A DNA stretch of 64,000 nucleotides from Acidobacteriota bacterium (GTDB taxonomy: Bacteria > Acidobacteriota > Terriglobia > Terriglobales > Acidobacteriaceae): assembly GCA_003225555.1 (NCBI GenBank), contig QIAM01000068.1, positions 1-64,000 of the forward strand. Direction: 5' to 3'. The position numbers and the translations under genes were made by a program. The notes beneath the pieces are model-generated. The model did not search any database. It saw only the letters and a list, made by a program, of their open reading frames with translations, and was not told the DNA's origin. Shown here in pieces: positions 787 through 5,981 of this stretch (position 1 is the first letter of the stretch; every line of letters starts with the position of its first letter).

Positions 787-811
787 CATGGTTGGCGAAA
801 AATCGCCTCTC

Positions 812-824
812 TGACAATGTCGGC
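812..824 (+). repeat. Subterminal inverted repeat of the IS, transposase-distal end
   Basis: TGACAATGTCGGC, the exact reverse complement of 2168-2180. It marks the end of the element behind the transposase stop codon. Confidence 0.8.
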
Positions 825-1046
825 GGTGTCAAGTACTTTTTGAGCGTACTAACCCCTGCACTCGTAAGAGCGCGCCATTTCGCTCTCGCTGAAGCTGTGC
901 CGTTCCAACCAAGGCTCGCTCGCAATCAGTTCAGGTCAGAAACTCAGTTCGACCCATGCATCTCTTCGGTCACAACGTCGATCATGATTACTACTTCGAA
1001 CTCCCCGGTGAAGGGGAGCGGGATACCCAATCAATAGCTCGGTGTT
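825..1046 (-). ncRNA. Candidate bridge RNA (seekRNA) region of the IS
   Basis: These 222 bases lie between the transposase stop and the distal inverted repeat and carry no credible gene. In IS1111-group elements this downstream position is where the guide RNA that pairs with target and donor DNA has been described. Two stem-loops are visible: CTCCCC/GGGGAG at 1001-1018 with a six-base loop, and AGAGCG/CGCTCT at 867-886 with an eight-base loop. The RNA is inferred from position and structure only. The RNA ends, the promoter and the target- and donor-pairing loops are not resolved. Confidence 0.45.
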
Positions 1047-2099
1047 CTACTTCACACCATGGCGATTTCCAGGTTGTCCCGCGTGCGAACCGAACTTTGT
1101 CAACTGCTCGTAATCCCATTCCTTGCGTAGCATCCAGTACAAACGAACCGCCAGTTTCCGCGCCATGGCGACTTTGGCGATCTTCCGTCCTCGTCGCATC
1201 GTCAGATGGCAATACTTACTCCGCCATTCCGGGAGGCTGCGCACCGTCACTTGCGCCGCTTCCACCAGCAGGAAACGCAACAGAGAGTTCCCTTGTTTCG
1301 TGATATGCCCCAGCCGTCGCTGATTCCCGCTCGACTTCTCCAACGGCACCAGTCCCAGATAGCTCGCGATCTGCTTGCCACACTGAAACCGATCCGCTTT
1401 TCCGATAATCAGCACGAAGGCTAACGCCGTCAGTGGACCTACCCCGGGATGCGTCCTCAACCGCTGCGCCGCGGGATACCTCTTCACTTCCTCCTCAATC
1501 GCCTGCGTCAGCTTGGCAATCGTCGGGTTCAGTTGATCCAACAACTCCAGCAGGTCGCGCCGGCGCTGGCTCGCCCAGGGTGCTAACTGGAATGACTCCA
1601 GTTTTTCTCGTCCGGCTTCCCGCCACAACTTCTTCTTGCAGCGTAAGCCTTCGTTCAGAGCCACGGCTTGCAGCTGATTCATCATCCGGGTCCGGGCCTG
1701 TACCATCCGGTGTCGATGCCACAGCAGTTGCCGCAGATCGCGATTCTCCCAACTCGGTACCCAGATCTGCGGAAAGTCATCTTTCAGCATTAATTTCAGA
1801 ATCAGCTGGGCATCCTGGCGATCCGTCTTCTGCTTCCGTACCCGCCTCGAACTGATCTCGGCTGCGTCTCCGATCCACAGCTCAAACTGCAACTCGGAGA
1901 GCAATCGTTCAAACCACCGCGCATGCCCGCTTGCTTCCATTCCTACACGCACCTTCATCCCCTGTGCCGCCAGATCACGGTAGAATTTCTCCGCTTCCTC
2001 GCGGTGTTGCAGTCGTCGCTCTTGCAGCTCCCCAGTCTCGGTATCCACAAAAGCAATTTGTTGGAAGCCCGGGTGGTAATCGCATCCTATAATGATCAT
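1047..2099 (-). CDS. IS110-family DEDD transposase
   Basis: The 350-residue recombinase moves the element through a RuvC-like DEDD catalytic domain joined to a C-terminal Tnp20 domain with a catalytic serine. Visible motifs are the first Asp in IIGCDYH near the N-terminus, Glu in GMEASG, the Asp pair in KTDRQDA, and the C-terminal HPGVGPLTALAF and ASYLGLVP-EKSSG blocks (Tnp20, helix-hairpin-helix-like). The ATG at 2099 was chosen over an ORF start at 2147 because GGAG lies eight bases before it and the protein then begins directly at the first catalytic strand. The gene is full length and intact, so the copy may be active. Confidence 0.92.
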   Translation of the reverse strand: MIIIGCDYHPGFQQIAFVDTETGELQERRLQHREEAEKFYRDLAAQGMKVRVGMEASGHARWFERLLSELQFELWIGDAAEISSRRVRKQKTDRQDAQLILKLMLKDDFPQIWVPSWENRDLRQLLWHRHRMVQARTRMMNQLQAVALNEGLRCKKKLWREAGREKLESFQLAPWASQRRRDLLELLDQLNPTIAKLTQAIEEEVKRYPAAQRLRTHPGVGPLTALAFVLIIGKADRFQCGKQIASYLGLVPLEKSSGNQRRLGHITKQGNSLLRFLLVEAAQVTVRSLPEWRSKYCHLTMRRGRKIAKVAMARKLAVRLYWMLRKEWDYEQLTKFGSHAGQPGNRHGVK

Positions 2100-2167
2100 C
2101 GTTCGGCTCCTTTCTCCCGAGCCTTTTTGGTTGGTTGGCACCACCAAAGTTTACTCGGGTCCAGGGA

Positions 2168-2180
2168 GCCGACATTGTCA
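2168..2180 (-). repeat. Subterminal inverted repeat of the IS, transposase-proximal end
   Basis: GCCGACATTGTCA on the + strand, the perfect mate of 812-824. It lies 68 bases upstream of the transposase start. Confidence 0.8.
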
Positions 2181-2400
2181 TGGAATCAATATCACTCATC
2201 ATTGACTTCGACTTCGGAGGGAACCAAGATTCAAGCTGTAAACTGCTGAAAAATAGACTCAGAGCCGCCTGGCATCAGCAGAAAAGTTCGAAAATCGTCC
2301 TCTAGGGCCGACCAATCTTCATTTCTGGCCCTTTCCTCCCCTTTTTTGCATCATGTTTGGACGACAGTTACCCCGGAGGATTGGCCGAGCCGATTCAACG

Positions 2401-5861: not shown

Positions 5862-5981
5862 TTCTTAGCCTGCCTACTGTTATAACATCGCCATTGCACT
5901 CATCGACCGGATTGGGTGCAACCACTAAGGCCCACTCAACGTTCTTCACGGTGTGAGTGCGAATCCGCGCGGTCCACTTGC

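What the first reader, a model, noticed from the sequence alone, without database searches (positions are those of the whole stretch)
825..1046. Candidate bridge RNA locus in an IS1111-like element
Between the transposase stop and the far inverted repeat lie 222 bases without a gene but with at least two stem-loops (1001-1018 and 867-886). In IS1111-group elements this is where the target-choosing guide RNA is encoded. A copy with an intact transposase would add a new programmable recombinase/RNA pair.
Basis: partly seen in the sequence, partly recalled or inferred. Interest (0 to 1): 0.6.

Follow-up and report, generated by a model that had tools for sequence, protein, structure and literature searches.

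The report
Guide RNA of an IS1111-type element
A jumping gene in an Acidobacteria-like genome carries, just behind its intact recombinase gene, a real structured RNA whose loops match the element's own joined ends, so it is a natural recombinase with its guide RNA, of a kind already known but from a new branch.

Summary
The 222 bases exist as described: they lie 3' of an intact minus-strand IS110/IS1111 recombinase (2099-1047), between its stop and a perfect 13-bp subterminal repeat. Folding energy shows no excess over shuffles (z -0.05), but comparison does. A covariance model built only from relatives with 48-69% identical recombinases finds one place in the 64 kb window: 900-1033 minus, E 1e-16. 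Four helices are kept by sequence-specific pairing. Two short segments match the joined element ends: AGAGATG (bottom-strand guide) and AATCA (top-strand guide); they change with those ends across 42 elements (37 of 42 perfect for each). The joined ends also complete a TTGACA-17-GATGAT promoter. Insertions lie in a dispersed repeat whose empty form was predicted and found (25 sites, control 0). The target-reading guide is not resolved: a blind scan found nothing and one candidate (GAAATGGCG) is only suggestive. Known kind, clade-specific RNA absent from Rfam. A possibly new extra: the RNA is complementary to the recombinase mRNA leader, beside a buried ribosome-binding site.

The parts
808..2188 (-). 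whole IS1111-type element (8 nt outside the left repeat, 4 nt outside the right repeat; 7 and 3 by the published convention)
   Evidence: flank comparison and empty target sites; joined-end promoter spacing
1047..2099 (-). recombinase/transposase, 350 aa, PF01548 + PF02371, intact
   Evidence: motif residues D7 E55 D93 D96 S257
2168..2180 (-). left subterminal inverted repeat TGACAATGTCGGC
   Evidence: 13 of 13
812..824 (-). right subterminal inverted repeat GCCGACATTGTCA
825..1046 (-). non-coding region encoding the guide RNA
   Evidence: covariance model hit 900-1033
986..991 (-). 5' strand of the stem closing the donor multiloop (GUAAUC), pairs with 922-927
985..989 (-). donor top-strand guide AATCA (complement of left-end TGATT)
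   Evidence: perfect in 37 of 42 elements
959..965 (-). donor bottom-strand guide AGAGATG (right-end AGAGA + left-end TG)
   Evidence: perfect in 37 of 42 elements
933..955 (-). helix 2 (GGGUC...GACCU)
922..927 (-). 3' strand of the multiloop-closing stem (GAUUGC)
905..918 (-). CGAGCCTTGGTTGG, complementary to the mRNA leader (2118-2134) with a 3-nt bulge
   Evidence: for this copy read by eye, the automatic alignment picked another, weaker stretch
867..886 (-). hairpin with candidate target guide GAAATGGCG (873-881)
   Evidence: conserved; candidate only; against it
827..832 (-). TTGACA, -35 box that gains a -10 box (GATGAT) only when the ends join
   Evidence: same distance in 39 of 42 elements
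2103..2110 (-). GGAGCCGA with the ribosome-binding site, paired with 2165-2172 (TCGGCTCC) in a -41.6 kcal/mol leader fold
2118..2134 (-). leader segment CCAACCAAAAAGGCTCG complementary to the guide RNA
2189..2201 (-). left target flank (..GAGTGATAT)
791..807 (-). right target flank (GGCGATTTTTCGCCAAC)

Best explanation
An intact IS1111-type insertion element with its guide RNA (seekRNA / bridge RNA) encoded 3' of the recombinase on the same strand. Excision joins the ends (GAGA|TGATTCCA). The junction completes a promoter (TTGACA - 17 - GATGAT) that drives leader, recombinase and guide RNA. The RNA folds into a 5' domain (helix 1 plus a closed multiloop) whose two short guides, AATCA and AGAGATG, read opposite strands of the joined ends, and a 3' domain that by position should read the target. 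The recombinase then inserts the circle into a dispersed, palindrome-linked repeat of the genus, ATGAGTGNAAT^[GC]GCGAT. Shown by sequence comparison: RNA structure, donor guides, promoter geometry, target repeat, intact enzyme motifs. Inferred: transcription, binding of the RNA by the protein, RNA-directed choice of the target, activity of this copy.
For: Recombinase domains and motifs. Perfect repeats and a 3' non-coding region. 32-sequence alignment with long invariant stretches. Model made only from 18 more distant relatives hits the window once, E 1.4e-16, and two other places in the genome. Four helices: own arms pair better than exchanged arms, p <= 4e-4 each, 28 sequences. Donor guides in 42 elements: bottom-strand guide 21 mismatches in all vs permutation mean 58 (minimum 40), top-strand guide 6 vs 14.6 (minimum 9); right ends AGAGA, ATAGA, ATCGA and ATACA each with the matching guide. 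On a tree of 31 recombinases, supported independent changes: ATAGA 3 of 3 with the guide, ATCGA 2 of 3, ATACA 1 of 1. Empty target: 25 sites in 12 of 41 genomes, 0 with the reversed control pattern, spacing always 1 although 0-5 was allowed; 8 vs 0 in the own genome at up to 3 mismatches. -35 box 19 nt from the end in 39 of 42.
Against: No excess folding energy. Blind scan for target guides in 28 elements: own pairs no better than exchanged ones (bottom p 0.71, top p 0.38). The best target-guide candidate hairpin also occurs in L153 and L059 at other insertion sites. Donor-guide misses: L150 and M_L036 one mismatch each, L157 an alignment gap, M_L025 and M_L073 deleted copies; top-strand misses L138, L146, L051, L179, M_L073. 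Few independent changes on the tree; sign tests cannot reach 0.05. 14 of the 17 distinct elements listed show a junction one base off the simple shared-core expectation. No transcript data.
Confidence: 0.92

Rival explanations
1. The region is a guide RNA, but in this subfamily it reads only the element's own joined ends; the target is chosen by the protein or by DNA structure of the palindromic repeat.
For: Donor guides are clear while a blind scan of 28 elements finds no target guides; the target of the window's subfamily varies at the left (GTTGGTGTAAT, AGCGTGCTAT, TTGAGCGTTAT) without matching RNA change.
Against: Published IS1111 relatives use RNA for the target (PMC11187229, read in part); GAAATGGCG matches the target profile at p 0.005-0.01 in three RNAs of the subfamily, about 0.1 after counting 16 tests.
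Confidence: 0.12
2. Conserved DNA rather than RNA: the region is kept as binding sites for the recombinase or for recognition of the ends.
For: Long invariant stretches; an internal inverted repeat between leader and non-coding region.
Against: Helices kept by exchange of both arms; guides correspond to opposite strands of the joined ends.
Confidence: 0.03
3. Remnant: the copy has lost activity and the region only decays.
For: Only one intact copy in the genome, others truncated or with a stop.
Against: Open 350-aa frame with all motif residues, perfect repeats, matching guides, both target flanks present; a left end 99% identical elsewhere in the genome suggests recent movement.
Confidence: 0.1

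Closest known systems
IS1111-group seekRNA systems (ISEc11, ISKpn4, ISPst6, ISPa11; PMC11187229, parts 1-3 of 9 of the text and passages read)
   Same: recombinase type, subterminal repeats, guide region 3' of the gene, joined-end promoter, insertion in repeats (ISPa11 in REPs)
   Different: the RNA model built here has no hit in 10 proteobacterial IS110-family loci; donor guides are located by comparison; complementarity to the mRNA leader
IS110 group with bridge RNA, IS621 and ISCro4 (PMC11208160, section 12 and passages read; structures by name)
   Same: two guide strands per loop that overlap at a short core; DEDD plus serine enzyme
   Different: guide RNA mostly 5' of the gene there; here 3', with the donor loop first and as a multiloop; protein similarity only partial (E 5e-9)
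ISPpu9 of Pseudomonas putida (PMC8450116, outline, abstract and passages read)
   Same: recombinase leader folds over the ribosome-binding site; a small RNA is encoded downstream; insertion in REPs
   Different: there the downstream RNA is complementary to an antisense RNA (Asr9), here to the leader itself; no antisense RNA was looked for here

Membership tests
IS1111 group of IS110-type elements | DEDD N-terminal and PF02371 C-terminal domains with GL-P----SG motif | tested here: met
   (GLVPLEKSSG at 249); motif as described
IS1111 group of IS110-type elements | perfect or near-perfect subterminal inverted repeats, usually 11-13 bp | tested here: met
   13 of 13
IS1111 group of IS110-type elements | asymmetric extensions, 7 bp left and 3 bp right | tested here: inconclusive
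   8 and 4 by empty-site accounting, 7 and 3 plus a shared AT by core accounting
IS1111 group of IS110-type elements | long non-coding region 3' of the recombinase gene | tested here: met
IS1111 group of IS110-type elements | promoter formed by the joined ends | tested here: met
   geometry only, 39 of 42 elements; activity not tested
seekRNA / bridge RNA | conserved structured RNA in that region | tested here: met
seekRNA / bridge RNA | segments complementary to both strands of the donor junction | tested here: met
seekRNA / bridge RNA | segments complementary to both strands of the target | tested here: inconclusive
seekRNA / bridge RNA | RNA made and bound by the recombinase | not testable with these tools
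   needs RNA sequencing or co-purification
any Rfam family | match to a curated RNA family | tested here: not met

The most novel reading that the evidence does not exclude
In this Acidobacteria-type clade the guide RNA also regulates its own recombinase: a stretch between its donor and target domains pairs with the mRNA leader right beside a ribosome-binding site that the leader buries, which couples enzyme supply to the presence of its guide. The partners change together between relatives (for example C to T in the RNA with G to A in the leader between L021 and L156).
Probability: 0.3. Interest if true: 0.65.

Novelty: new member of a known kind. Interest (0 to 1): 0.45.

Why it matters
It gives a natural enzyme and guide RNA pair from a branch for which I found no description, with the donor guides located by co-change, a defined target repeat, many relatives with other ends and targets, and one relative with eight copies in one genome. 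That is good material for working out guide rules, and the leader complementarity raises a testable question on how such elements control themselves.

Tried and rejected
Single-sequence folding as evidence: no signal. Rfam: none. Orthologous empty site for the window copy: the left flank has no counterpart in 61 genomes beyond short pieces, so the empty site is shown only by the repeat family. First automatic donor-guide extraction mis-registered 6 of 37 by its anchor and was replaced by alignment columns. In one search the right ends were set by a short list of end motifs written after looking at the ends, a partial circularity; the -35 distance supports those ends in 39 of 42. Rows dropped before that count: seven near-identical copies L164-L170; L033 (same copy as L134), L002 (same as L062), L016 (diverged right end); L059 (repeat pair misplaced by the script); and 19 fetched elements without a located repeat pair, 12 and 7. 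Target-guide search: nothing in the blind scan (where the right flank of L061 was set by hand past a duplicated right end). Stretches that looked like target matches (GATTAC, GAGTGCA, TACGCTCA) were set aside because they also form stems or recur in relatives with other targets. A second subfamily (L137 type, target about TCCACA|TGTCCGGTAA) and the eight-copy family did not resolve it. The idea that the guide RNA opens the buried ribosome-binding site: in computed co-folds 5 of 38 elements opened by more than 0.2, against 1 with shuffled RNA, and not the window copy, so the sign of any regulation is open. Leader complementarity in proteobacterial elements: of 10 loci, none of the 7 with repeats of 12 or more showed a second stretch above shuffled leaders. 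Literature searches; ISPpu9 was the only related regulation case met (through a reference). No claim about print goes beyond these searches.

Full report
The thing itself. On the minus strand of the window an open reading frame has an ATG at 2099 and stops at 1047. It carries both domains of the IS110 superfamily, DEDD_Tnp_IS110 (E 8e-17) and Transposase_20 (E 3e-24), is related to the solved IS621 and ISCro4 enzymes, and keeps D7, E55, D93, D96 and S257, which are invariant or nearly so in 43 aligned relatives (which of these are catalytic is from family knowledge). A perfect 13-bp inverted repeat frames it at 812-824 and 2168-2180.

Is it more than chance? Folding energy alone says no (z -0.05). 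Relatives say yes. The element or pieces of it occur in 28 of 61 related genomes, 27 of the 37 of the genus; 24 loci come from named genome assemblies, nearly all titled Acidobacteria or close; more distant relatives come from 35 of 250 genomes of the class. The 32 complete copies of the region that I aligned have long invariant stretches. It finds one match in the 64 kb window, 900-1033 minus, 77.5 bits, E 1.4e-16, and in the whole genome this copy, the C24 copy and the C112 fragment. It finds nothing in 10 proteobacterial IS110-family loci, so the RNA is a family of its own clade; Rfam has none.

Structure. RNAalifold and exchanged-arm tests agree on helix 1 (1000-1019), a stem that closes a multiloop (986-991 with 922-927), a small hairpin inside it, and helix 2 (933-955). 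In 28 diverse sequences each helix pairs better with its own partner than with that of another element (p 2e-4 to 4e-4); the closing stem is GTAATC/GATTAC, GAATCA/TGATTC, ACAATC/GATTGT, GCATCA/TGATGC and others. These tests do not correct for kinship.

Donor guides. At fixed places of the alignment two short stretches equal the element's own joined ends: the 7-mer before helix 2 equals the last 5 bases of the right end plus TG of the left end, and the 5-mer that overlaps the closing stem is the complement of the first 5 bases of the left end. Each is perfect in 37 of 42 elements; total mismatches 21 and 6 against permutation means 58 and 14.6. Right ends come as AGAGA, ATAGA, ATCGA, ATTGA and ATACA; all but ATTGA (L150) have the matching guide. 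On a tree of 31 recombinases the right-end type changes 5 times and the guide 4 times; on well-supported branches the guide follows in 3 of 3 (ATAGA), 2 of 3 (ATCGA) and 1 of 1 (ATACA) changes. The events are few, but none goes the other way. It fits the published remark that IS1111 bridge RNAs may hold donor-binding bases in a multiloop.

Joined ends. A TTGAC box ends 19 nt from the right end in 39 of 42 elements (20 in 2, absent in 1); joining to the left end puts GATGAT (37), CATGAT (2) or AGATGA (2) 17 nt behind it. Joined-end promoters are described for the group.

Target. Flanks of the copies converge on ..ATGAGTGNAAT at the left and [GC]GCGATNTTNCG or CGCCTGTTTTCG at the right. The empty site so predicted exists: 25 sites in 12 of 41 genomes, all in the genus, none with the reversed control pattern, and always with exactly one base between AAT and GCGAT (16 G, 9 C) although zero to five were allowed. 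In the own genome there are 8 sites against 0 for the control at up to 3 mismatches, one of them in this window at 5878-5902. Several sites have an inverted partner (ATTACACTCA) upstream, so the target looks like a repetitive palindrome, as with ISPa11 and ISPpu9.

Target guide: open. A scan of 28 elements for own-flank matches in the 3' part of the RNA gave nothing beyond exchanged flanks (p 0.71 and 0.38). The eight-copy family of one genome (insertion after a palindrome and before GGGGCACCC) and a second subfamily did not help. So RNA-directed choice of the target rests here on what is known of the family.

Junction oddity. Of the 17 distinct elements listed, 14 read ..AT|TGATTCCA at the left and GAGA|[GC]GC or alike at the right, which balances against the empty site with no shared base; L039 and L062 read GTGAAAT|GATTCCA and GAGAT|GGC, which fits a shared core AT; L016 is unclear. 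Both types give the same inferred circle, GAGATGATTCCA. I have no explanation.

Leader. The first part of the transcript folds into one hairpin of -41.6 kcal/mol that pairs the ribosome-binding site (GGAGCCGA) with the inner end of the left repeat (TCGGCTCC); the computed openness of the site is below 0.1 in 33 of 38 elements. Beside it lies a stretch complementary to the guide RNA. In 28 elements (27 distant plus the window) the own complementarity scores 14.3 against 10.1 for exchanged leaders (p 2e-4), 9.3 for shuffled leaders and 9.6 for the same-sense control; it lies 12-31 nt before the start codon in 25 of 28. L021 and L156 differ by a paired change. The window copy has 14 pairs with a 3-nt bulge, seen by eye; the scoring picked another stretch for it. 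The leader's own hairpin arm resembles the RNA stretch, so part of the signal may be shared ancestry. Co-folding does not show that the RNA opens the site. The nearest precedent is ISPpu9.

Verdict. It is a new member of a known kind, with a clade-specific RNA and one possibly new regulatory feature.

Noticed in passing
window 2103-2110 with 2165-2172, and 2118-2134 with 905-918: The recombinase leader buries its ribosome-binding site in a strong hairpin and is complementary to the guide RNA; both kept in relatives.
   Followed up: partly
L073 (164 bp), L065 (750 bp), L025 (724 bp) between the repeats: Internally deleted copies that keep both ends; L073 is a very small non-autonomous form that has lost the donor guides.
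   Followed up: partly
L039, L062 versus L033, L034, L035, L036 and others: Two junction types that differ by one base in where the crossover falls, though the inferred circle is the same.
   Followed up: partly
L101 (C80:815-900 of the own genome): A left end 99% identical to the window copy, cut off within the leader just before the ribosome-binding site by other sequence; no Rfam match there.
   Followed up: partly
window 5878-5902: An unoccupied target-like repeat with 2 mismatches on the minus strand.
   Followed up: no
L164-L171 (one genome, 8 copies): A related element inserted 8 times directly after short palindromes and before GGGGCACCC-like sequence.
   Followed up: partly
L138, L139, L146, L158, L160: Longer 3' non-coding regions (313-409 nt) with an extra strong hairpin in several, and a shared stretch GCGTCAAGGGTCTGCGATGAACGG in L146, L158 and L160.
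   Followed up: no
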